A stretch of DNA of 47,708 nt, taken from assembly GCA_947587615.1 (NCBI GenBank), contig CANPYC010000015.1, forward strand, positions 1 through 47,708, given 5' to 3'. How positions within the stretch are numbered: position 1 is the first letter of the stretch; every line of letters begins with the position of its first letter. The notes under the pieces were generated by a model. That model made no database searches. It saw nothing but the letters and a program-made list of their open reading frames with translations, and was not told the DNA's origin. The translations under genes and the position numbers were made by a program. This stretch comes from Candidatus Gastranaerophilales bacterium. Its GTDB lineage: Bacteria; Cyanobacteriota; Vampirovibrionia; Gastranaerophilales; Gastranaerophilaceae. Below are positions 1 through 45,979 of this stretch, piece by piece.

Positions 1-1179
1 GTTTCAGCAATTAACAATAACTATGATATAAAAACAGCCGCTCTTAAAATTGAGCAGGCAAATATTAACGTTTTAGCGACACGTGCGGGGCAGCTGCCTA
101 CAATTGGAATTGGTGCAAGCCCTTTTTTAAATAAAATGCCCGCAACAACAAAATCCGAAGGTTCTTTTGCTCTTCCTATAATCGCTCAATACGAGCTTGA
201 TTTATTCGGAAAAAATTGGGACAAAACAAAATCTTCAAAAAAACTTCTTCAAGGGGTAAAGTATCAGACTCAAGCTGCTGATATTTCAATTTTATCGCTT
301 GTTGCAACAACTTATTATAATGTAGTTAAATTTGATAAATTAATTGAATTGCAAGAAAAACTCGTTAAAGAAAGAAAAGATATTTACGACCTTAAAAAAG
401 TGTCAAATGAAGAAGGGATTGTTTCTACATCTGATTTAATTTTGGCTGAAAAAAATTATGTCTTAGCTCAGAATGATTTACTTGACTATCAAAAAGCAAG
501 ACAAAACGCTCTTAATGCTCTTGCTGTTTTAATCGGAGATAGCCCTAATAACATAAACGAATATCAGAGAATTTCTTATGATAATTTAGCCGATAAATTC
601 AATATCCCTGATGAAATAAGCTCTGATATAATAATTAATCGTCCTGATTATAAGTCAATCGAAAAACAACTAGAAGCGGCAGGGCTTGATGTTCGAGTTG
701 CAAAAAAAGAATTTTTACCCACATTTGATATTCTTGGCGCCATTGCATTTTTAGCAACTTCAACACTCGGTTCAATGGATTGGAAAAACGCATTTTCAAT
801 TCTTGGTATAAGCGGAGATTTACCGATATTTACAGGTTTTGTTAAAACTGCAAATTTAAAATTGAATAAAAATAAATATCAACAACTTTTAGAACAGTAT
901 CAGAAAACAAACCTTGTTGCTATTCAAGAAGTTAATGACAGTTTGTATAACTATAAAACCGATAACGAAAAGCTTGTAAATAATACTAAAGCTCTTAATA
1001 TCCAAAAGCAGGATTTCAAATTTGCAAATTCAAAATATAATAAAGGGGTAATTTCTAAGCTGGATTTACTTGAACAAAAAGAAGCACTCTTGTATATGGA
1101 AAAAATAGCGGTAAGTACAAAGATGGATTGCTATGCCGATAAAATCAGTCTGTATAAAACAACGGGTGCTCGAATATAA
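1..1179 (+). CDS. TolC-family outer-membrane efflux channel, 5'-truncated
   Basis: The reading frame is open from the first base of the window, so the gene starts upstream; the first in-frame ATG (136) is internal. The 392 visible residues have the look of the OMF/TolC family: long amphipathic helices rich in Asn, Gln, Lys and Leu, two sequence halves each with an A-x-N-D/L-x-x-Y-type helical segment (around 480-520 and 1010-1060), and a loop with the NRPDYK-type sequence at 640-660 that is typical of the family (RPD before the second helical half). Such channels form the outer-membrane exit duct of RND or ABC efflux and type I secretion machines. The partner pump genes would be expected upstream, outside the window. 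The signal peptide is not visible. The 3' end of this gene is duplicated, in decayed form, at about 2195-2379. Family call is good; the substrate cannot be judged. Confidence 0.85.
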   Translation, partial: VSAINNNYDIKTAALKIEQANINVLATRAGQLPTIGIGASPFLNKMPATTKSEGSFALPIIAQYELDLFGKNWDKTKSSKKLLQGVKYQTQAADISILSLVATTYYNVVKFDKLIELQEKLVKERKDIYDLKKVSNEEGIVSTSDLILAEKNYVLAQNDLLDYQKARQNALNALAVLIGDSPNNINEYQRISYDNLADKFNIPDEISSDIIINRPDYKSIEKQLEAAGLDVRVAKKEFLPTFDILGAIAFLATSTLGSMDWKNAFSILGISGDLPIFTGFVKTANLKLNKNKYQQLLEQYQKTNLVAIQEVNDSLYNYKTDNEKLVNNTKALNIQKQDFKFANSKYNKGVISKLDLLEQKEALLYMEKIAVSTKMDCYADKISLYKTTGARI

Positions 1180-33267: not shown

Positions 33268-35433
33268 CTACAAAGTCCGCACCATCTCAGCTATTTCATC
33301 ATCAGTCAAATCTTGCGTTTTAATTTTATCAAGCACTTTTTGAATTTTTGCTATTATTTCTTTATGGAATTCAATCTTAGAATCATTACTAACCGCTCTA
33401 AAACGCTCTTGAGCGGTTTTTAAAAGTTCGTTTTGTTCGTTAATTTTAACTCTTACATTTGCAATTTGAATATCCGCTTGTTCAACAGAAAAACTATAAC
33501 TTGTTTTAGCAAGTTCGTCTTGTTTTTGTTTTATTAAAAGGTACAATTGCTCGATTTCTTCTTTTAAACTTTGCTCTTTTTCAATATTTAGCTTGTGTTT
33601 TATTATGGGAGAAGTTTTTGATAAATTCTCCAATTTTTCTTCAACGGCTATTTTGGCAAATTCAAAAACCGATAAATCTTCATCCGTTAGATTTTTCTTT
33701 GACGTTTGAAGGGTATACAGTAAAAATGCTTGGCTTATTTTGTTTTTAATTGTTTGCAGTTTTTCATATTCTTTTAAATCAGCAACATCTTGATATTCAC
33801 TCCTGCCTACAAAATTTTTGTTTAGGTAAATTAACTCTTCAAGTTTTTCTTTTTTGGACTTTATTTCTTTATTCAAATTATCAATTTCAAGCAAAAGCGC
33901 TTGTCTTGTATAAGCTTGTGCTCTTTTTGAAATCAGCGTATCAAGCTTTTTATTCAATTTTTCAATATTTTTCTTGCAATCTTGAGGAAAGATTATTTGC
34001 TTTTTAACTTTTATAAACTGCATTTGCAATTTTGAAAGATTTTTTTTGAGTATTTCAAGATGCTGATTTTCATTTACATACTCTTCTTCAAGTTTTGTAA
34101 TTGGAGTTTTGGAAAGATATTTTTTAGCTTTAATTATATTTCTTCTGGTTTTTGCAAAAGCCTCCGACCCCTTAGGAAGTCCTTTTATAAAATCTCTTTG
34201 TTGGTCTAATTTTTTCTGCCATTTATAGTATTTATTTACATGCTGATGAAAATTTGTTTTTCTTTTTTCACAATTGGAAATCTTTTTCTCAAGGTTTTCA
34301 ATTTCATCTTTTAATTCATTGTAGTGAATAATTAGTAAATATTGCTCGTCATCTTTATATTTTTCTTTTATTTCCAATAATTCAGCCAATTCGCTTGTGT
34401 GAGAATTTAATCTTTTTTCAAGCCTCTTAATAGTTTCATCTGCGCTTGTTTTACTTTTTTGCTCGGATAGTATTTCTTTACAGCTCAGCTCTATTTGACC
34501 TTTGGTTTCTTTTTTAATTGTTTTTGCGATATCGGGCAAATAATCACAATATTTTGCCGGAATTTCACCTGTTTTTAATTTTTGTGCAATAACATCAAAA
34601 TATCTTCTTAAATTAAAAATTAAATCAGGTCTTGAAAGCCATTCCCAAAAAGGTCTTTGCTCTCTTTTTGAATTATCTTCTTCACACTCAACAAGATAGT
34701 TTGAAGTGTTATTTAAACCTCCTTGAGATTTTGGTCTTATATGCTCGCAAGTAGCAAGCGACGGGGTTAAAAGCCTTGATAAAAATTCGGCTTGCGTTTT
34801 ATCTTTATATTTAATCAAAAACATTACAGCGCCTTCATTATCATCAGGAACTTTATTTGCAAGCTTAAAGATTTTCTTTGCCTCATGGGAAGAGCGTGCA
34901 CATTTTTCCAAATTTGCTAAAAATTGCTTTTTAACAAATTTTCTATCCCCATGGGAATTGATAATATCAATATTTTCATTGATTAATTCAAGAATTGAAG
35001 CTTTATTTGTTTCTTTTTGAGATATCAGAAGTTTTTTAATTTTCTCAAGTGCACAAATTTGCCTTTCTTCAATTAAAGGTAGGGTTCTTTTTAAATAATC
35101 ATTTGCCAGAGTTAAAACATTTGCGCTATTGTTATTTGAAGCTTCTTGAATAAGTATATTTATAACTTCTCTTTCAGTATCGTGATAATATTTTTGATAT
35201 TTGTTTAGAATTTTTATAAGCTCCGCTCCTTTTTTATTCAAAGCGGAATTTACAAAACTATCAATCTGATTTTTTTGTATCATCGGAATTGAACAGATAG
35301 GACAGGGGATATCATAAAGTCTTTTAAGTTCAAAATTATCCTCGCTGCAATCAAAACCTCTAAAAACGATTTTAGGAGAATTTAAGCCGGTTTTATACAA
35401 CTTATTATTTAATACATTGAGCGATATTTTCAT
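33268..35433 (-). CDS. Split HNH/zinc domain plus long coiled-coil protein (A)
   Basis: 721 aa. An N-terminal VFRGFDCS motif (about 23-30), then CPIC (Cys44, Cys47), then a helical insert of about 180 residues, then an HNH-like core TCEHIRPKSQGGLNNTSNY (about 228-246) with LVECEEDNSKR (Cys250, Asp253, Asn254). In ordinary HNH nucleases the two CxxC pairs and the E-H-x-x-P lie close together; here the last Cys is replaced by Asp253. Residues 320-720 form a very long charged coiled coil with a few breaks. No membrane span. Its ATG overlaps the end of gene B by 4 bp. A nuclease function is an inference; the loss of one zinc ligand may weaken it. Confidence 0.7.
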   Translation of the reverse strand: MKISLNVLNNKLYKTGLNSPKIVFRGFDCSEDNFELKRLYDIPCPICSIPMIQKNQIDSFVNSALNKKGAELIKILNKYQKYYHDTEREVINILIQEASNNNSANVLTLANDYLKRTLPLIEERQICALEKIKKLLISQKETNKASILELINENIDIINSHGDRKFVKKQFLANLEKCARSSHEAKKIFKLANKVPDDNEGAVMFLIKYKDKTQAEFLSRLLTPSLATCEHIRPKSQGGLNNTSNYLVECEEDNSKREQRPFWEWLSRPDLIFNLRRYFDVIAQKLKTGEIPAKYCDYLPDIAKTIKKETKGQIELSCKEILSEQKSKTSADETIKRLEKRLNSHTSELAELLEIKEKYKDDEQYLLIIHYNELKDEIENLEKKISNCEKRKTNFHQHVNKYYKWQKKLDQQRDFIKGLPKGSEAFAKTRRNIIKAKKYLSKTPITKLEEEYVNENQHLEILKKNLSKLQMQFIKVKKQIIFPQDCKKNIEKLNKKLDTLISKRAQAYTRQALLLEIDNLNKEIKSKKEKLEELIYLNKNFVGRSEYQDVADLKEYEKLQTIKNKISQAFLLYTLQTSKKNLTDEDLSVFEFAKIAVEEKLENLSKTSPIIKHKLNIEKEQSLKEEIEQLYLLIKQKQDELAKTSYSFSVEQADIQIANVRVKINEQNELLKTAQERFRAVSNDSKIEFHKEIIAKIQKVLDKIKTQDLTDDEIAEMVRTL

Positions 35434-37613
35434 TTTATATAAAACTGTCCGATTAAATTTTCAAACTCTTCCCTTGATAGCCTTTTGTATACTTTTAACT
35501 CATTTAATAGCATATTATTATAATTAATCAAATCTGCAAGTGCTTCATACTCAGTTCTTAACTGCTGAATATTTTTAATTTTTTCAACTTGAGAAAGCTC
35601 ATCTTGAAGCATTATGACATCATTTTGCATATCAGAGATTGTTGTTCCCGCACTCAGCAAATTAATTTGAGTAAATAAAAGATTTATTTGTTTTTCAACT
35701 TCTTCAATTTCTTTCAGTCTTTGTTTTTCTTTTTCTTCTTCATCCGTTATTTGTTTAACGGTTTTATTATTTTGATATTTTTTAACTTCATTATCTTCTA
35801 AGAGTTCTTTAATTTGTTTTTGTATTGCAACTTGAGCAATTGTTAAAATATCTTTGTCGATTTTTTCACTTGTGCTCTGTTTTTCGCCTAATTCTTCATA
35901 TATTTCCGCACTTCTTTGAGCCATCTCAAGTAAATAGTTATATCTTGCAATATTACCATGGCTTAAAGACGGGTTTTTTTCATCCTCAAGAGCTTGAAGT
36001 TCTTCAATTATACGTGTCTTTTCGCTTTGCAGCATTCTCATTCTTTGAATAATTGAAATTTTATCGGAAATTGAATTTTTTAACTTTGTAATTTTTTCGT
36101 CAAACTCTTTAATCTTACTTATTGTTTGTTGTTTTTCTTTTATTTGTTCTTTAATTTTGTTTTCTGAAGGAATTACCGCCTCAAGTATTCTGATTGTATT
36201 TTTTAAACTTGCATGTTCATGAGATAAATTTTCAATTTCTTCATTATTGCTTGATGATTTTTCTTTTTGCAGCTTGGCAAGTCTTGCTTCAACCGTTTCT
36301 AATCTTTCCGATAAAGTTTGATGTTGAATTATTCTTTTGAATTGCGGATAAGCTTCAAGCGCTTCAATTTGAGCTAATAATTCGCTTTTTTTAGCCGATA
36401 AATCGTTCAATTTTTCTCTCAGGGAAGCAAGAAGCTTTGTTCTTGAAGCAATTTCAGAGTCTTTAAGATACATATTTTCGCTCTTTGGTGCAATTAAAAC
36501 AATTTGCCCGTTACTTAATTTATATATTTTTTTAATAAATTCGGAAATGTAGTCATAATATTTTTCATCTAAAAGACCTTTATCAAGGGCTTGCTGAACT
36601 TCATTAACATATTCTTGCAAATTTTGAGAAAAATCCGGAATATTTTCCATCCACTCGCTAAAAGGAGTTGTGCCTCTTGAAGTATTACATTCGCTGCAAT
36701 CACACATATAATTTGAGCTACTGTTAATAAAAAGAATGTTATAGCCGTTATCTCTGCCTGTTGATTGAGGAATTATATGTTCTGTTGTAGGAATTGTATT
36801 TGAAACAAACCTTTTTGCAATTTCTTGGGAGGAATAATTTTTTGAATATTTTACAAAAAATGAATTTATATCATTGCTTGAATTTGGCAGCTTTTGAACA
36901 ATTTTATTAATTTCCTGCTGTTTATCCTTATCTTCAATTACGTTAACAAGAGCATATATAAACTTTTTTCTTGCAAATTCTTCTTCGCCCTGTCCTAAAA
37001 TTTGTTTTTTATGTTTGTCGATAATATTTTTAATTGCGCAGAGTTCGTCAAAAGAAGTTATGTTTTCTATTACATAATTTTCAAGCTCTTTTATAACCCC
37101 CAATTGAATTTCAATCAGATTGTTTAAATATACCTTTGCCTGAAGCTGAACAATGCCTGCTAAATCAAGCTTGGGGTTTTCAAGCGCCAATTTTTTTATT
37201 ATGTTGATTATTTCCTGCTTTTGCGCTCTGTATATGCCTCTTTTTTTACCGTCTTTTGGTTTTTTTGAATCATCCTCCAAAAAACAGGAATCATCCTCAT
37301 ATTTTTCAAGAGCGGAAGCTAAAGCCTTGCCTTTTTTATTTGAAACATCGTCAATAAAAGCTTTTATTTGAGAAGAATCAAGCATAATCAAACCGCAAAC
37401 CGGGCAGCGCAAATTTTTAATCTCTTTTACCCGAAAAGAAGAAGGGGCGCAGGAAAAACCCTTGAAATTGATTGAATTTTTATAATGCGGAATGTGGTTT
37501 AAATTAAGCACATTTGATACTTGTTTTGAATTTTTTTCAGGCTTTGCATATTTATTTTTATTGAATACACTTATTTTTTTATTGATTAAATTTGCGCTAA
37601 AATTTATCTTCAT
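35430..37613 (-). CDS. Split HNH/zinc domain plus long coiled-coil protein (B)
   Basis: 727 aa, paralogue of the next gene downstream with the same architecture: INFKGFSCAPSSF (48-60), CPVC (Cys70, Cys73), helical insert, HNH core TTEHIIPQSTGRDNGYN (276-292; Glu278, His279), then CDCSECNTSRG with the pair Cys306/Cys309 and Asn310, and FSEWM. In contrast to paralogue A the zinc ligands and the C-x-x-C-N-x-x-R pattern are intact, so this copy is the better candidate for an active HNH nuclease. Residues 380-720 are a long coiled coil. It overlaps the helicase gene by 4 bp (ATGA) upstream and gene A by 4 bp downstream. Confidence 0.72.
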   Translation of the reverse strand: MKINFSANLINKKISVFNKNKYAKPEKNSKQVSNVLNLNHIPHYKNSINFKGFSCAPSSFRVKEIKNLRCPVCGLIMLDSSQIKAFIDDVSNKKGKALASALEKYEDDSCFLEDDSKKPKDGKKRGIYRAQKQEIINIIKKLALENPKLDLAGIVQLQAKVYLNNLIEIQLGVIKELENYVIENITSFDELCAIKNIIDKHKKQILGQGEEEFARKKFIYALVNVIEDKDKQQEINKIVQKLPNSSNDINSFFVKYSKNYSSQEIAKRFVSNTIPTTEHIIPQSTGRDNGYNILFINSSSNYMCDCSECNTSRGTTPFSEWMENIPDFSQNLQEYVNEVQQALDKGLLDEKYYDYISEFIKKIYKLSNGQIVLIAPKSENMYLKDSEIASRTKLLASLREKLNDLSAKKSELLAQIEALEAYPQFKRIIQHQTLSERLETVEARLAKLQKEKSSSNNEEIENLSHEHASLKNTIRILEAVIPSENKIKEQIKEKQQTISKIKEFDEKITKLKNSISDKISIIQRMRMLQSEKTRIIEELQALEDEKNPSLSHGNIARYNYLLEMAQRSAEIYEELGEKQSTSEKIDKDILTIAQVAIQKQIKELLEDNEVKKYQNNKTVKQITDEEEKEKQRLKEIEEVEKQINLLFTQINLLSAGTTISDMQNDVIMLQDELSQVEKIKNIQQLRTEYEALADLINYNNMLLNELKVYKRLSREEFENLIGQFYIK

Positions 37614-40405
37614 ACTTCCACCAAATCATTAACGGGTTTTTGAACCAAAAGCAGTAAAGCAAGCTCGGAATTTTCTTTTAAATTTTCATAGTAGCTTGTA
37701 TTAGGGAACTTTTCAGGATTCATCAATGCGAAGTCGCAAATTCTTGCAATTGTTTTAAGGGTTGAAACGCTTTGCGAGATTATCTTATAAACACTTCCTT
37801 GCTTAATTTTTCTTAAATATTCGCTTCTTGCTTCAATCAAATAATCATCAGTATCTTCATCCGTCATAGGTTCTTTTGTTAATCTGATAAAATTATCAAC
37901 GGAATTTTGATTGTTATCGTTTAAAATTGCCCACGCATAGCTAATATAAGAAGAAAAAGCATTTCCATACATTATATCTTCTTTTTGAGCTTTACTTTCT
38001 TTTGTTGCTTTAATTATTCGCATTTCTTTTTTGGAGATATTTTGAATTATTTTATTAAAATTTACAATTTTTTCATCATCCGATGAACAATTTAAAACTT
38101 TCTCCATTTGAGGATTTAAAATTTCTCCTATAAATTCGCTTTCTTTTTGTTCGTTTGAACCTGCAATATAGCCTGCAATTTGAATTAGAGAAAAAACATC
38201 AAGGTCTTTAAATTTTTCATTATATATTAAATCCGATAATAACAGAGGGTTTACTCCTCTCGCAAGTCTTAAAAGCTCTCCCTTGGGGGTTAAATTAACT
38301 TTTTTGTTATGATTAATTTCAACAAAACCAAGTTTTTTAAGAGTATTTTTATAATTTTCAAATTTATTTAAAAGTCTTTGAGCTTCTTTTTCTTTATTTT
38401 TGGTTAAAAAAACCTTAAAACTGTTATCAATATGAGTTTTTAGAGCTTCAAAATCACTATTATTTGTGTAATAATCACTAAGCATACACCAATCGGGCTT
38501 ATAGTGGCTTCTTAGCGGATTGGATGGGCTTTCCAAAAGTTCATAGGCAAGCGCCAATTCATCAATTTTTATCTCGTCGTCGTTTGCCGCAATCGGCTTT
38601 CTAAAACTCGAAGGGCTTAATTCATCTCTAAAACCGTCTTTTGGGGTTTTTAAGTTGTATAATACAACATTTCCGATTTTATCAATTCCCCTTCTGCCTG
38701 CCCTGCCTGCCATCTGGTGAAATTCACTTGCATTTAGAGGCTTTTGCTCAATGGAATTAAGCTCGGGATTATATTTTCTATATGCCATATCGGACATAAC
38801 AACCGTTCTTGCGGGCATATTAATACCTAAAGACAAAGTAGAGGTTGCAACAACGACTTTTAAAAGTTTTTTTTGGAATAATTCTTCAATCAGTTTTCTA
38901 TATTGAGGCAAAGTTCCTGCATGATGATAGCTGAAACCCTTTAAAATTGTTTGTTCATCAAAATCCGAGCCTAAGTATATTTTATCTTTTTTATATTTTT
39001 CAAATATTTTTTTAATTTCTTCCTTTTCTTCATCTGTCGTTAAATCAATCGAGGATTCAGCAAAAGAATTTACGCTAAACTCGCATTCTCCCTGCGACAG
39101 CTTGAAAAATATTGCAGGAAGCATATCATTATCTTTAAGAGAGTTAATCAGTTGATTGTTGAATTTTTTAATTCTTCTCGGGTCAAAATTTTCCAAATGA
39201 ATTTTATCAATGCTTTTTTCTTTATCATCCGCTAAAAGGCAGGAAATTTCCTTAAGAGTTATTTTATCAATATTGGGATAAATTTTTTCAAGGATTTTTT
39301 GAAAATCTTTTAAATCAAGGCTTTCTTCTCTTTCAAAATTAGCCAAAAAGAGGTTCATTGTTTTTTGAAGCTCATCTAAATCAGGCTTATAGTATTCATT
39401 TTTGTTGTTTGTTTCCCTAAAAAGATATTCAAAAGCACGCCTTTGAGAAGGGTTTAATTTTTCAACATCCGAAGGAATTTTAGATAAATTAACATTTTGA
39501 TTTATTATCGGTATAAATTCGCCGTCTTTTGCCCCTTCTTTGTTCCATTTATAAATTGAATATACAAGAGGTACAAACCTGTCTTTTGCTTCTACTTCAA
39601 TATTTGATACAGCTCTTTTAGGGCTTAAGGATTGAATCCAGCTTGCAAAATCAGAACTGTTACCGATAGTTGCCGATAAAAACAAAAGCTGAATTTTATC
39701 CTGAGGAGTGTTTATGATTGAATTTTCCCAAACAACCCCTCTTTGCTCGTCATTTATATAATGAGCTTCATCAAAAATTACACTTCCGATTTTGGCTGCA
39801 TTTTGAAGCCCGCAAGCTGCCATATTGTCATATATTTCAGTCGTCATTATAACAATCGGGGCATTGGGATTATGTTTAATATCCCCCGTTAAAAGCCCTA
39901 TGTTTTCATTTCCGTAAATTTTGCAAAATTCATTGTATTTATCGTTTGCAAGCGCTATTTGAGGAGATGTGTATATTGTTTTTTTATTGTTTTCAAGATT
40001 TTTATTGATTGCGTAATGAGCAAGTGCGGTTTTACCCGTTCCTGTCGGGGCGCTGAAAATTACGCTGTCACCTTCGTAGATTTTTTTAGCGGCTCTTATT
40101 TGCGCTTCGTCAGGTTGAAACCTGTAAATCGTACCGTCATCTAAAGTTATTTGCGGAAGTTTGAAAAAGTTTTTATCAATTGTTTTTTCAAAATCGTTTT
40201 TCTTGCGCAAATCAATATAAGCGCAAAAATTAATGTTATTATTATAAATTGAAGCCGTTAACGCACTCTTTTCACCGATTTTTGCTTTTTTTAAATCTGC
40301 CTTGCAAGTAAGCGTATTTGTATTTATTTTATTCTTGTTTTTGCCCTTGCCTTTGTTTTTATATACAGCGCTTGAATAACCAAAACAATTAATCGGTGAA
40401 AGCAT
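37610..40405 (-). CDS. Ski2/HelY-like DExH-box helicase
   Basis: 931 aa. Lineage-type N-terminus of 80 residues with INFCAYID, then an SF2 core: Q-like motif FQPDEAQIRAA, Walker A SAPTGTGKTA (118-127), Walker B DEAH (212-215), SAT (244-246), SYHHAGTLPQYR, VVVATSTLSLGINMPARTVV and the motif VI HQMAGRAGRRGID. The GINMPA and GRAGRRG motifs and the helical C-terminal domain place it with Ski2/Mtr4/HelY RNA helicases. A 200-residue insert lies between the two RecA domains. Its stop overlaps the start of coiled-coil protein B by 4 bp, so helicase, B and A form one coupled operon. Substrate, RNA or DNA, unknown. Confidence 0.85.
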   Translation of the reverse strand: MLSPINCFGYSSAVYKNKGKGKNKNKINTNTLTCKADLKKAKIGEKSALTASIYNNNINFCAYIDLRKKNDFEKTIDKNFFKLPQITLDDGTIYRFQPDEAQIRAAKKIYEGDSVIFSAPTGTGKTALAHYAINKNLENNKKTIYTSPQIALANDKYNEFCKIYGNENIGLLTGDIKHNPNAPIVIMTTEIYDNMAACGLQNAAKIGSVIFDEAHYINDEQRGVVWENSIINTPQDKIQLLFLSATIGNSSDFASWIQSLSPKRAVSNIEVEAKDRFVPLVYSIYKWNKEGAKDGEFIPIINQNVNLSKIPSDVEKLNPSQRRAFEYLFRETNNKNEYYKPDLDELQKTMNLFLANFEREESLDLKDFQKILEKIYPNIDKITLKEISCLLADDKEKSIDKIHLENFDPRRIKKFNNQLINSLKDNDMLPAIFFKLSQGECEFSVNSFAESSIDLTTDEEKEEIKKIFEKYKKDKIYLGSDFDEQTILKGFSYHHAGTLPQYRKLIEELFQKKLLKVVVATSTLSLGINMPARTVVMSDMAYRKYNPELNSIEQKPLNASEFHQMAGRAGRRGIDKIGNVVLYNLKTPKDGFRDELSPSSFRKPIAANDDEIKIDELALAYELLESPSNPLRSHYKPDWCMLSDYYTNNSDFEALKTHIDNSFKVFLTKNKEKEAQRLLNKFENYKNTLKKLGFVEINHNKKVNLTPKGELLRLARGVNPLLLSDLIYNEKFKDLDVFSLIQIAGYIAGSNEQKESEFIGEILNPQMEKVLNCSSDDEKIVNFNKIIQNISKKEMRIIKATKESKAQKEDIMYGNAFSSYISYAWAILNDNNQNSVDNFIRLTKEPMTDEDTDDYLIEARSEYLRKIKQGSVYKIISQSVSTLKTIARICDFALMNPEKFPNTSYYENLKENSELALLLLVQKPVNDLVEV

Positions 40406-41010: not shown

Positions 41011-41568
41011 TTATTTTAAAAAATATGAAGCCGCCCCTATAACTGCACAAAAAGCTATATAAATCAAAGGATTGCGACTGAATTTAAAAGTTAAAACAAA
41101 TAAAAATAAAACCAAAGCTAAGGCTCTAAAGTTAACATGAGCAAACGATATATCATTATTCAAAACAAGGCCGTAAAAGAGTTTTAGCGCAACAAAACAA
41201 ATTAAAGCACATGATGTGGGTCTTAAAACATATAAAATTGTCTTAACAAATTTATTCTCGCTAAACTTTTTATAAAGCCGAAAAACTTGACTTGCAATTA
41301 TTATCATAGGCAGAATAAGAGCAAAGCTTGATATAATTGAACCAAAAAGCCCTGCTGTTTTAAATCCCGCAAATGTAGCCATATTAAGACCTATTGGTCC
41401 GGGGGTTAAGCCCGATATTGCTATCATTTGAGTAAGCTCATCAACACTAAACCAACCGTATCCCTCGCTCATTTGATATAAAAAAGGTAAAGAAGCGTAA
41501 CCACCGCCAAAGGTAAATAATCCTACCTTTACAAATTCAAAAAATAAAGAAAAATATTGTTCAAGCAT
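41011..41568 (-). CDS. Chromate transporter family protein, half-size (second)
   Basis: 185 aa with about five or six membrane segments. FVKVGLFTFGGGYASLPFLY and ISGLTPGPIGLNMATFAG are the signature of the CHR family half-proteins. Full-length ChrA has two such halves; many bacteria encode them as two genes, as here. Chromate export is known for some members, but half-size pairs often have untested substrates. Its ATG overlaps the end of the first half gene by 8 bp. Confidence 0.9.
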   Translation of the reverse strand: MLEQYFSLFFEFVKVGLFTFGGGYASLPFLYQMSEGYGWFSVDELTQMIAISGLTPGPIGLNMATFAGFKTAGLFGSIISSFALILPMIIIASQVFRLYKKFSENKFVKTILYVLRPTSCALICFVALKLFYGLVLNNDISFAHVNFRALALVLFLFVLTFKFSRNPLIYIAFCAVIGAASYFLK

Positions 41569-42109
41569 TCTTCTTATCCTTTATAATTTGTAAAATTAAC
41601 CCGACAAAAATTGAAAGTATAATAAGCAAAGCAGGGTTAACTTTCAATATTGATAAAGCCAAAATTAAAACAAACCAAAAAGCGCTGAATTTATCAACAA
41701 TGCTTTTAAGCCACATCTCTTTAAGTGTTAAATAAATTAAAATTATTACACATAAATTAACACCCCAAAACACCCCTTCAATAAAAGGAATTGAAATAAT
41801 TTTATTTAAAACATCAGCTATTATTATGATTGAGACAAAAGGCGATAAGCACATTCCCAAAACACCCGCCAAAACCCCTTTAAATTTAGCCAGTTTATAG
41901 CCGACCAAAATTGACATATTTATTGCAATAATTCCGCACAAACATTGACTTACGCAATAATAATCACAAATTTCATCATCACTGAGCCAGCCTCTTTTTT
42001 CCGTCAATTCCTGTTTCATTATTGGCACAATAACATAACCGCCCCCAAGCAGTATCAAACCGATTTTAAAAAAAGCTTTAAAGATATTTAAGAAACTGAT
42101 TTTTTGCAT
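41561..42109 (-). CDS. Chromate transporter family protein, half-size (first)
   Basis: 182 aa, CHR family: FFKIGLILLGGGYVIVPIM and LTEKRGWLSDDEICDYYCVS, then IIAINMSILVGYKLA. Partner of the next half gene, with which it would form the complete inner-membrane transporter. The start is 2 bp after the stop of the membrane-anchored protein gene, which suggests a three-gene operon. Confidence 0.9.
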   Translation of the reverse strand: MQKISFLNIFKAFFKIGLILLGGGYVIVPIMKQELTEKRGWLSDDEICDYYCVSQCLCGIIAINMSILVGYKLAKFKGVLAGVLGMCLSPFVSIIIIADVLNKIISIPFIEGVFWGVNLCVIILIYLTLKEMWLKSIVDKFSAFWFVLILALSILKVNPALLIILSIFVGLILQIIKDKKNA

Positions 42110-44415: not shown

Positions 44416-45075
44416 TTAGAATATCTTTTTTATAAGTTCCGGTTTTTTACTTTTTTCAATGGCATTTTTTAACAATTTACATGACATACATTTTCCGCAG
44501 TGTTTTTTGTTTGTGTTTTCTTTTGAATTGTAGCAGCTTTTTAATAAAGACAAGTTAATAGAATTATCTATCGCATAGTTAATTATGTCAATTTTATCCA
44601 TGTCAATACAGGGTGCTATTACTTCAACTTTATTCAGGGTTGAATATTTAAAAAAGTTTTTTGCTTCTTTTATAAAGTTTTTTGTATTGTCGGGAAAGTC
44701 CCTTGCTTCTTCTTTATTTGCTCCAAAAATTATATAATCCCACCTGTTTTTGTCGCAAAAACTAGCGGCAATGTTTAAAAATAACCCGTTGCGATTTGGT
44801 ATCCAAACGGAGTTAAAATCATCAAAATTATTATTATCATTATTTGTCAGAGCATTGTTTGAAAGGCTTGCCAAAAAATACAGATCAATAACTTTATGTT
44901 TAATATTATAAAGCTCGCAAATTTTAGCCGCCGCTTCTTTTTCTTCATAGAAAGCTTTTTGATTATAGTTAAACGTTAAAGCGAGCTTAATATCGCAAAA
45001 GTTTTTTGCGATGTCAACGGAAATCAAACTGTCCAGCCCGCCCGAGAGCAGAACAACCCCTTTTTTATCTTTCAT
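44416..45075 (-). CDS. queC: 7-cyano-7-deazaguanine synthase
   Basis: 219 aa. PP-loop SGGLDS (11-16), FNYNQKAFYEEKEAA, VWIPNRNGLFLNIAASF, IIFGANKEEARDFPDN and a C-terminal zinc site with Cys181, Cys193, Cys196 and Cys199 (HCGKCMSC). It converts 7-carboxy-7-deazaguanine to preQ0 with ATP and ammonia, for queuosine in tRNA. queD, queE and queF are not adjacent. It overlaps the HEAT-repeat gene by 11 bp. Confidence 0.93.
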   Translation of the reverse strand: MKDKKGVVLLSGGLDSLISVDIAKNFCDIKLALTFNYNQKAFYEEKEAAAKICELYNIKHKVIDLYFLASLSNNALTNNDNNNFDDFNSVWIPNRNGLFLNIAASFCDKNRWDYIIFGANKEEARDFPDNTKNFIKEAKNFFKYSTLNKVEVIAPCIDMDKIDIINYAIDNSINLSLLKSCYNSKENTNKKHCGKCMSCKLLKNAIEKSKKPELIKKIF

Positions 45076-45979
45076 ATTCTTTTATTATTTCCTTTGCATA
45101 TTCTTTCAACTCTGCTTCAAATTCCCCTTCAATAACTTCATGAAGTATTCTTTCATCCGTTAAATTATAAAGAGCAACTAAAGCATTTTTTTTAACTTCA
45201 ATATTATCATCAAATTTTAATCTTTCGTAAATTAAATTGTAACTTCCTTCGATGTTTGAGTTCATAAGCGTTTCAATTGTTGCTATTCTTAAATCTTTGG
45301 AAGAATCCAAAAGAGAATTTTTTAAAATATCAAGAGCTTTTTGATTTTTTGAAATTTCAAGCTTGTTCATGGCTTCAACGATTTTTTCTTTCAGATATGT
45401 AAATTTGTCAAGAAACATTTGCTTTGTGTTTATTATAGAGCTGAAAACATCAACCGCTCTGTTGTCTCCAAGCATACCGAGCGCCAAAACAGCCGACTCT
45501 TTAACGTATGTTGATTTTTCTTTTTCGTCAACCGCAATACTCTTTAAAGCTTCAAAAGCGTTTTTATCCCCGATTTTTCCGAGCGCCTCGGCTGCCGCCA
45601 GTTTAATTTTATAGTTTGAATTTTTATCGTTCAAACAAAAAAGCAAAGAAGGAACAGCCTGTGTATCTTTATAATTTGAAATTGTTTTAATGGCTAAAAC
45701 TTTTAAATTTAAAAATTTGCCATCCTTTGGCCGTACAATAAAATCTATTAATGAAGGTAAAATTTCTTTATGTTTTTCTTTGTTTAAAAACCTTAAAAGC
45801 TCGTCCAAGAGCTTAATATCGCTACAATTGCGAAGATAAAAGTCAAAACAGTTTATTATATCTTCTTTTTTAAAATTATTTTTCAGCTCTTTAAAAGTAT
45901 CGGCATAATTTGAATTATGTGCAAGTTTTTCTTCGATGTGTTTAATTATATCTTTGGAAAAATTGTCCATATTAGCCAC
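45065..45979 (-). CDS. HEAT-repeat protein
   Basis: 304 aa, helical throughout with HEAT or PBS-lyase-like repeats: TQAVPSLLFCLNDKNSNYKI, LAAAEALGKIGDKNAFEAL and SAVLALGMLGDNRAVDVF at about 30-35-residue spacing. No catalytic motif, signal peptide or membrane span. In Cyanobacteria related repeats occur in phycobilin lyases, but here the protein is likely only a scaffold. First gene of the operon with queC (11-bp overlap); divergent from dnaG. Confidence 0.8.
   Translation of the reverse strand: MANMDNFSKDIIKHIEEKLAHNSNYADTFKELKNNFKKEDIINCFDFYLRNCSDIKLLDELLRFLNKEKHKEILPSLIDFIVRPKDGKFLNLKVLAIKTISNYKDTQAVPSLLFCLNDKNSNYKIKLAAAEALGKIGDKNAFEALKSIAVDEKEKSTYVKESAVLALGMLGDNRAVDVFSSIINTKQMFLDKFTYLKEKIVEAMNKLEISKNQKALDILKNSLLDSSKDLRIATIETLMNSNIEGSYNLIYERLKFDDNIEVKKNALVALYNLTDERILHEVIEGEFEAELKEYAKEIIKEYER

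What the first reader, a model, noticed from the sequence alone, without database searches (positions are those of the whole stretch)
33268..40405. Coupled operon of a Ski2-like helicase and two split-HNH coiled-coil paralogues
Seen: three genes in one direction, each overlapping the next by exactly 4 bp (37610-37613 and 35430-35433). The helicase carries complete SF2 motifs of the Ski2/HelY type; the two others share an N-terminal CxxC, an HNH-like core and 350-400 residues of coiled coil. Known: Ski2-type helicases feed RNA or remodel nucleoprotein; HNH domains cut DNA or RNA; coiled coils give long-range assembly, as in SMC-like and several defence systems. Inference: a nucleic-acid-processing machine with coupled stoichiometry, possibly defence or RNA turnover. 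I know of no described system with this composition.
Basis: partly seen in the sequence, partly recalled or inferred. Interest (0 to 1): 0.78.

Follow-up and report, generated by a model that had tools for sequence, protein, structure and literature searches.

The report
Leader-tagged helicase with split Cas9-type HNH nucleases
In one family of non-photosynthetic gut relatives of cyanobacteria, an RNA/DNA-unwinding motor and one or two cutting enzymes, whose blade resembles that of Cas9 but is split in two in the sequence, evolve, travel and are once even fused as one unit, which suggests an undescribed nucleic-acid-cutting machine of still unknown purpose.

Summary
Observation confirmed: three genes, same strand, exact 4-bp overlaps. 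H is a Ski2/Mtr4-type SF2 helicase with all motifs. A and B are paralogues with a genuine split HNH: an N-terminal CxxC, ~150 residues of helical insertion, then the bba-metal core. AlphaFold (core pLDDT>95) plus structural alignment reassembles the two pieces onto contiguous type II-C Cas9 HNH domains (Z 9.8); AceCas9 is also the best PDB profile hit (E 7e-7). The catalytic E/D-H, N and N are conserved. The genes belong together: H adjoins an HNH gene in all 17 checkable genomes of the genus and in three further genera. Helicase and HNH trees both put one of those pairings (g135) on a separate branch. One genome (G007) has an in-frame helicase-HNH fusion. H and B co-diverge beyond species divergence. 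B loses its coiled coil in three genomes that lack any such helicase. Genes are under purifying selection but diverge far faster than neighbours. Defence is unproven: no defence islands, no phage or plasmid homologues. Confined to Gastranaerophilales. H, A and B share a disordered N-terminal leader (…[IVL]xFxG) absent from the housekeeping Ski2 paralogue (0/32). Best reading: a helicase-gated nuclease, functionally like Hachiman but not a member. Substrate and purpose unknown.

The parts
37610..40405 (-). H: Ski2/Mtr4-type SF2 helicase, 931 aa
   Evidence: Pfam DEAD + Helicase_C; PDB phmmer Ski2 E 6e-66; invariant motifs in 14 orthologues
40220..40405 (-). H N-terminal leader, residues 1-62, ending in INFCA
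   Evidence: the housekeeping Ski2 paralogue (G000:C6:6763-9093) starts directly with the helicase (0/32 carry the motif)
39596..40126 (-). H RecA1 domain (residues 94-270: GTGKT, DEAH, SAT)
38642..39169 (-). H RecA2 domain (residues 413-588: GINMPA, QMAGRAGRRG)
37610..37613 (-). 4-bp overlap of H stop and B start
35430..37613 (-). B: split-HNH nuclease with coiled-coil arm, 727 aa
37461..37613 (-). B leader, residues 1-51, ending in INFKG; predicted disordered
   Evidence: pLDDT <50 for residues 1-50
37395..37406 (-). B first zinc-type knuckle CPVC (C70, C73)
   Evidence: C70 49/49, C73 45/49
36843..37301 (-). B helical insertion (about residues 105-257) that splits the HNH domain
   Evidence: models; structural alignment 56..358 onto contiguous Cas9 559..673
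36675..36791 (-). B bba-metal core (residues 275-313: EH, N301, CxxCN)
   Evidence: strands 275-279, 302-306, helix 307-313; conservation
35448..36479 (-). B coiled-coil arm, residues 379-722
   Evidence: helices at pLDDT mostly >90
35430..35433 (-). 4-bp overlap of B stop and A start
33268..35433 (-). A: paralogous split-HNH protein with coiled coil, 721 aa
35356..35433 (-). A leader, residues 1-26, containing IVFRG
35293..35304 (-). A first knuckle CPIC (C44, C47)
34672..34746 (-). A HNH core (E230, H231, N245, C250, D253 in place of Cys, N254)

Best explanation
H and the HNH proteins form one helicase-nuclease machine. Shown: a leader-bearing Ski2-type helicase is genetically tied to split-HNH proteins by an operon recurring in four genera, pairings on separate branches, one in-frame fusion, co-divergence, and loss of the coil in genomes lacking such a helicase. 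Shown by model: the HNH folds like the HNH of type II-C Cas9, its first zinc knuckle moved ~200 residues upstream of the core by a helical insertion. Inferred: H translocates on or unwinds nucleic acid, and the HNH, held to it by the coiled-coil arm, cuts the exposed strand. Most probably this is a helicase-gated DNA nuclease that works like Hachiman or AbpAB, directed at aberrant or foreign nucleic acid. The leader probably brings H, B and A to the same cellular place. Target, trigger and biological role are not shown.
For: Operon: H next to A or B on the same contig in 17 of 18 H-bearing genomes of the genus, the 18th (G007) carrying the fusion, and in g3, g144 and g135. HNH-adjacent helicases lie in two separate clades (starred branches force 2 changes); the g135 HNH also lies apart from A/B. 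Fusion: G007 helicase runs in frame, without a second leader, into the HNH-family N-terminal half (E 4e-22). Co-divergence: H-B rho 0.75, partial 0.64 given species markers, Mantel p 0.0005; H-A 0.87. Replacement: genomes lacking H keep B at the same chromosomal site and have a different leader-bearing helicase H2 elsewhere, on two separate branches. B is 360-579 aa in the three genomes with neither helicase, 657-773 aa in 20 of 21 with one. HNH fold and catalytic residues. dN/dS 0.08-0.28. Much faster divergence than neighbours (mean identity H 0.46, B 0.40, markers 0.71-0.72) fits a conflict role.
Against: No defence islands: among 85 neighbours of 17 loci only one locus (G010) has a clear restriction-modification gene. 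No full-length phage, plasmid or viral-contig homologues. Near-universal presence of the HNH family in Gastranaerophilaceae is unlike most defence systems. H is closer to RNA helicases (Ski2/Mtr4) than to Hel308 or HamB, so the substrate may be RNA. No complex was modelled. G008 keeps H with a B lacking the coil and g135 HNHs lack it too, so the coil is not indispensable. The H2-replacement and coil-loss arguments rest on draft metagenome assemblies.
Confidence: 0.5

Rival explanations
1. A housekeeping-like RNA or DNA turnover or repair machine: a Ski2/Mtr4-like motor feeding a dedicated nuclease, at a particular cellular site, with no role in defence.
For: H is closest to Ski2/Mtr4; strong purifying selection; mainly vertical inheritance, H and B distances correlate with species markers (rho 0.56 each); neighbours are DnaJ, fatty-acid and metabolic genes; in g3 the operon also holds an AAA+ M41-type protease.
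Against: Repeated loss of H, A or B, replacement by H2 and fast divergence are unusual for a core turnover enzyme; the genomes keep a separate, conserved Ski2-type helicase.
Confidence: 0.28
2. The leader is an export or translocation signal and H, B, A are effectors that act in another cell or outside this one.
For: Disordered N-terminal leader with a [IVL]xFx[GA] end shared with otherwise unrelated proteins, including ankyrin, amylase and peptidase-like proteins, absent from the cytosolic Ski2 paralogue.
Against: A helicase needs ATP; no secretion genes seen in the neighbourhoods examined; no immunity-like partners; no classical signal peptide; the genome-wide enrichment of the leader is modest.
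Confidence: 0.13
3. Neighbours by descent only: an HNH multigene family inserted beside a helicase, with no shared mechanism.
For: The HNH family is mostly solo, and in six genomes of the genus the leader helicase (H2) and B are unlinked.
Against: Pairings on separate branches, in-frame fusion, co-divergence, loss of the coil without a helicase.
Confidence: 0.09

Closest known systems
Hachiman (HamA-HamB) and AbpAB antiphage systems
   Same: Two-part locus of a Ski2-like SF2 helicase and a nuclease; HamB restrains the HamA nuclease and frees it on DNA damage (PMC12278908).
   Different: No HamA (DUF1837); the nuclease is HNH with a coiled-coil arm; H is nearer to Ski2/Mtr4 than to HamB; no defence-island context; H begins with a leader, and whether it has anything like the HamB N-terminal bundle was not modelled.
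HNH domain of type II-C Cas9 (and IscB)
   Same: bba-metal fold, E/D-H, N, N and CxxC pairs; Z 9.8 and 9.7 to AceCas9 and AnaCas9; profile E 7e-7; three of the four plasmid hits are annotated IscB.
   Different: Split by a ~150-residue helical insertion; no RuvC domain or guide-RNA parts detected; partner is a helicase.
Septu (PtuA ATPase + PtuB HNH) and ATPase-HNH retrons
   Same: A motor or ATPase paired with an HNH nuclease (from general knowledge).
   Different: No PADLOC match of A or B to PtuB or any other model; the partner is an SF2 helicase, not an ABC/SMC-like ATPase.
ZRANB3
   Same: Helicase-type ATPase plus HNH making an ATP-dependent endonuclease (PMC5481773); compare the G007 fusion.
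   Different: SNF2-type eukaryotic protein; not shown to be homologous beyond the domain superfamilies.
Ski complex / Mtr4
   Same: Closest solved helicases to H.
   Different: No Ski3, Ski8 or exosome partner in the locus; a nuclease of another class instead.

Membership tests
Hachiman (HamAB) | HamA nuclease (DUF1837) | tested here: not met
   A and B hit only HNH models; no HamA in Pfam, NCBIfam or PADLOC
Hachiman (HamAB) | Ski2-like SF2 helicase HamB | tested here: inconclusive
   PADLOC HamB E 2e-32, but Ski2/Mtr4 much better among solved chains (6e-66 against 1.5e-14 for HamB)
Hachiman (HamAB) | N-terminal helical bundle of HamB that binds HamA | tested here: inconclusive
   H has only ~90 residues before RecA1, much of it leader; H was not modelled
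Cas9/IscB RNA-guided nucleases | HNH domain of Cas9 type | tested here: met
   Z 9.8, 3.1 A over 109 residues; E 7e-7
Cas9/IscB RNA-guided nucleases | RuvC domain and guide-RNA binding | tested here: not met
   No RuvC or Cas9 family match in A, B or H
HNH superfamily | bba-metal core with conserved His-Asn-His/Asn | tested here: met
   H279 49/49, N301 49/49, N310 49/49; strands and helix in both models
HNH superfamily | Metal-dependent nuclease activity | not testable with these tools
   Needs biochemistry
Ski2-like SF2 helicases | SF2 motifs I-VI | tested here: met
Septu | PtuA ATPase and PtuB | tested here: not met
   No PADLOC match of A or B; H is SF2
Known antiphage systems in general | Location in defence islands | tested here: not met
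   85 neighbours at 17 loci: one clear R-M neighbour; window flanks are ilvB, ruvA, glgA, chrA, queC
Known antiphage systems in general | Protection against phage | not testable with these tools
   Needs an assay
SMC / Rad50 | ABC-type ATPase heads on the coil | tested here: not met
   No ABC/SMC ATPase match in A or B above chance; only coils match

The most novel reading that the evidence does not exclude
The N-terminal leader (M[KRI][IV]…, Asn/Lys-rich disordered stretch, [IVL]xFx[GA]) is an undescribed targeting presequence of Gastranaerophilales. It sends paralogues of housekeeping enzymes (Ski2 helicase, AAA+ M41-type protease, glucanotransferase and others) and lineage-specific nucleases to one cellular place, where a helicase-HNH-protease machine processes nucleic acid.
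Probability: 0.2. Interest if true: 0.88.

Novelty: new variant of a known kind. Interest (0 to 1): 0.62.

Why it matters
It would add a helicase-gated nuclease of new composition to a class (Hachiman, AbpAB, Septu, ZRANB3) in which motor-nuclease coupling is being worked out, and it offers a natural fusion and natural helicase swaps to test that coupling. It shows a Cas9-type HNH domain broken in sequence by a folded insertion and used outside Cas9/IscB. The shared leader makes a concrete, cheap test of whether this little-studied gut lineage has its own protein-targeting signal.

Tried and rejected
Defence-island reading: rejected as unsupported. The 8 'mads_2' hits are probably DnaJ/chaperone matches, since 7 DnaJ proteins are among the neighbours; this was not traced protein by protein. 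Horizontal transfer argued from G013 against G003/G009 (general helicase 99% identical but different operons): rejected, because five other markers give only 72% identity, so the G013 general helicase is misplaced or contaminating. Fold searches with full-length B returned only coiled coils or chance matches until VIA-align showed AceCas9; solved by folding the natural 385-aa B of G008. Foldseek itself gave no E<0.001 match for either model; the fold claim rests on VIA-align plus the independent profile hit. The search for related loci with alignment A3 failed for lack of conserved blocks. HNH fusion in the long g39/g134 helicases: tested, none. Simple regular-expression census of the leader: noisy (start-signature test p 0.057). 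Positive selection: not seen. Literature: no described system found.

Full report
WHAT IS THERE. The three ORFs, strands and both 4-bp overlaps are exactly as reported. The window is one contig of a draft genome (G000). Records of its relatives are titled Candidatus Gastranaerophilales or uncultured gut bacteria, so the host is a non-photosynthetic relative of Cyanobacteria. Flanking genes are acetolactate synthase, RuvA and glycogen synthase on one side and chromate transporter halves and QueC on the other.

HELICASE. H is an SF2 helicase with every motif conserved in 14 orthologues. Its best solved relatives are Ski2 and Mtr4 (E 6e-66), ahead of Hel308 (best 8e-37) and HamB (1.5e-14). The genomes of the genus, except one incomplete assembly (G006) in which it was not found, also have a conserved ~776-aa Ski2-type helicase elsewhere (G000:C6:6763-9093 in this one), with 80% mean identity among the H-bearing genomes against 45% for H.

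SPLIT HNH. Pfam sees A and B only at the noise edge, but 49 homologues share C70, C73, E278, H279, N301, C306, C309 and N310 (B numbering), the His and both Asn without exception. In four solo homologues both CxxC pairs are lost together (CPY[RY]G with an xxSGN- or STNAN-type second knuckle), which supports the two distant CxxC pairs serving one zinc site; this is an inference. AlphaFold of B gives disordered residues 1-50, a compact HNH domain and long helices at 379-722. The natural 385-aa B of G008, which lacks the coil, was modelled with core pLDDT mostly above 95, pTM 0.79. VIA-align places its residues 56-358 on the contiguous residues 559-673 of AceCas9 (Z 9.8, 3.1 A over 109 residues) and on AnaCas9 (Z 9.7); Nme, Geo, Sa and SpCas9 HNH domains also appear (Z 5.8-7.4). 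Independently, the family profile's best PDB hit is AceCas9 (E 7e-7), covering EH…N…CxxCN…pFxxW. So the HNH is of Cas9 type, cut in two in sequence by a helical insertion. No RuvC or guide-RNA part was detected, so it is not a Cas9.

DISTRIBUTION. The HNH family occurs in 1-5 copies in nearly all Gastranaerophilaceae genomes searched, usually alone and usually 320-550 aa, and more weakly in other families of the order. Matches in phages, plasmids and other Cyanobacteria are short, covering the HNH core alone, or weak; none was confirmed in viral contigs. In the window's genus (28 genomes), 18 have H. In 17 of these H lies next to A, B or both on the same contig; in the 18th (G007) the helicase frame runs at a contig end into an HNH-family domain. 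Nine of the other ten have B without H; G019 has neither. Outside the genus the pair is found in g3 (with an upstream leader-bearing AAA+ M41-type protease), g144 and g135.

WHY IT IS A UNIT. (i) In the helicase tree the HNH-adjacent rows need two changes forced by starred branches, and the g135 HNH lies on a different starred branch from A and B. Two separate pairings, or one ancient pairing with losses, both point to function. g144 helicases are missing from that tree. (ii) The G007 fusion has the helicase in frame with CPVC and the helical insertion, without a second leader (E 4e-22), then the contig ends; the end of an HNH domain opens contig C33, directly upstream of B. (iii) H-B and H-A distances correlate more with each other (0.75, 0.87) than with species markers (0.56 for H and for B, 0.76 for A); partial H-B 0.64; Mantel p 0.0005. 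(iv) In G016, G018, G021 and G025 B sits alone at the very site (between clusters c2 and c13, on the DnaJ side) where G013 and G023 carry H-B(-A); in G003 and G009 B sits between SDR gene c8 and c28 where G011 carries H-B. All six have another leader-bearing helicase, H2, at another locus; their H2s fall on two branches near genus g37. G027 has the empty c2-c13 junction. (v) In the three genomes with B but neither helicase, B is 362, 360 and 579 aa; in the 21 with one it is 657-773 aa, except G008 (385). Ignoring phylogeny the chance is 4/2024; the three lie on different branches of the B tree, not all well supported. So the coil goes with the helicase, though not strictly.

SELECTION. dN/dS is 0.08-0.28 over whole genes, lowest in H; no sign of positive selection. 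Yet H and B are far more diverged (mean identity 0.46 and 0.40) than neighbouring marker genes (0.71-0.72) in the same genomes.

LEADER. H, H2, B and A begin with M-[KRI]-[IVT] or similar, an Asn/Lys-rich stretch of 20-45 residues that is disordered in both models, and end in [IVL]xFx[GA] just before the folded domain. The strict motif is found in 12/18 H, 5/10 H2, 20/24 B, 5/11 A and 0/32 housekeeping Ski2 paralogues; most of the rest keep a looser xFx[GAH] form. Elsewhere 8/594 family representatives carry a leader at their start against 2/1862 at internal methionines (Fisher p 3e-4; the A/B and helicase families are included). A second test was marginal (p 0.057). Carriers include AAA+ M41-type proteases, an amylase, a nucleotidyltransferase and an ankyrin protein; a 4-alpha-glucanotransferase begins similarly (MKISALNSNLNF) but fits only a loosened pattern.

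HOW IT MOST LIKELY WORKS. A leader-directed complex in which H moves along nucleic acid and the HNH cuts, the coil tethering or positioning them. The Cas9-type HNH suggests DNA; the Ski2/Mtr4 kinship of H leaves RNA open. Hachiman is the nearest worked-out analogue: HamB holds the HamA nuclease in check and releases it on DNA damage (PMC12278908). Defence or genome-integrity sensing fits the rapid divergence and turnover, but the neighbourhoods are not defence islands (85 neighbours at 17 loci, one clear R-M case).

LIMITS. The genomes compared are mostly draft metagenome assemblies; structures are predicted; no complex was modelled; no activity is known. The leader census is regular-expression based. 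I did not model A or H.

Noticed in passing
window 40220-40405, 37461-37613, 35356-35433; L085:11177-14116, L198:4729-6480, L087:3123-5189, L117:18788-19996, L120:6919-7932, L290:5273-8332: A disordered Asn-rich N-terminal leader ending in [IVL]xFx[GA] recurs on unrelated proteins across Gastranaerophilales, while the housekeeping Ski2 paralogue lacks it (0/32); it may be an undescribed targeting signal.
   Followed up: partly
L085:11177-14116 (G029) and L325:3286-6258 (G348): In genus g3 a ~980-990-aa leader-bearing protein (AAA + peptidase M41 by Pfam in G029) is the first gene of the operon, overlapping the helicase gene.
   Followed up: partly
L203:3-3371 (G007 contig C18) and L072:3-245 (contig C33): In-frame helicase-HNH fusion ending at a contig end; the HNH end opens another contig, directly upstream of B.
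   Followed up: yes
L095:7529-8626, L096:1974-3008, L097:7895-8983, L098:6830-7876: A solo HNH subfamily has lost both CxxC pairs together while keeping His, Asn, Asn.
   Followed up: no
L222 (G013:C16): The G013 general helicase is 99% identical to that of G003 although other markers are only 72% identical; likely bin contamination or recombination.
   Followed up: partly
window 45065-45979: A protein with weak CpcE/NblB-type phycobilin-lyase matches (E 7e-14, probably HEAT-like repeats) in a non-photosynthetic lineage.
   Followed up: no
window 41011-42109: Chromate-transporter-like gene split into two overlapping half-size ORFs.
   Followed up: no
L117:18788-19996; G008:C1:219239-220930: Two leader proteins without Pfam match: by eye one has deaminase-like CGE…CADC motifs, the other a NUMOD3-like stretch (LSEAHKKKISDSLK).
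   Followed up: no
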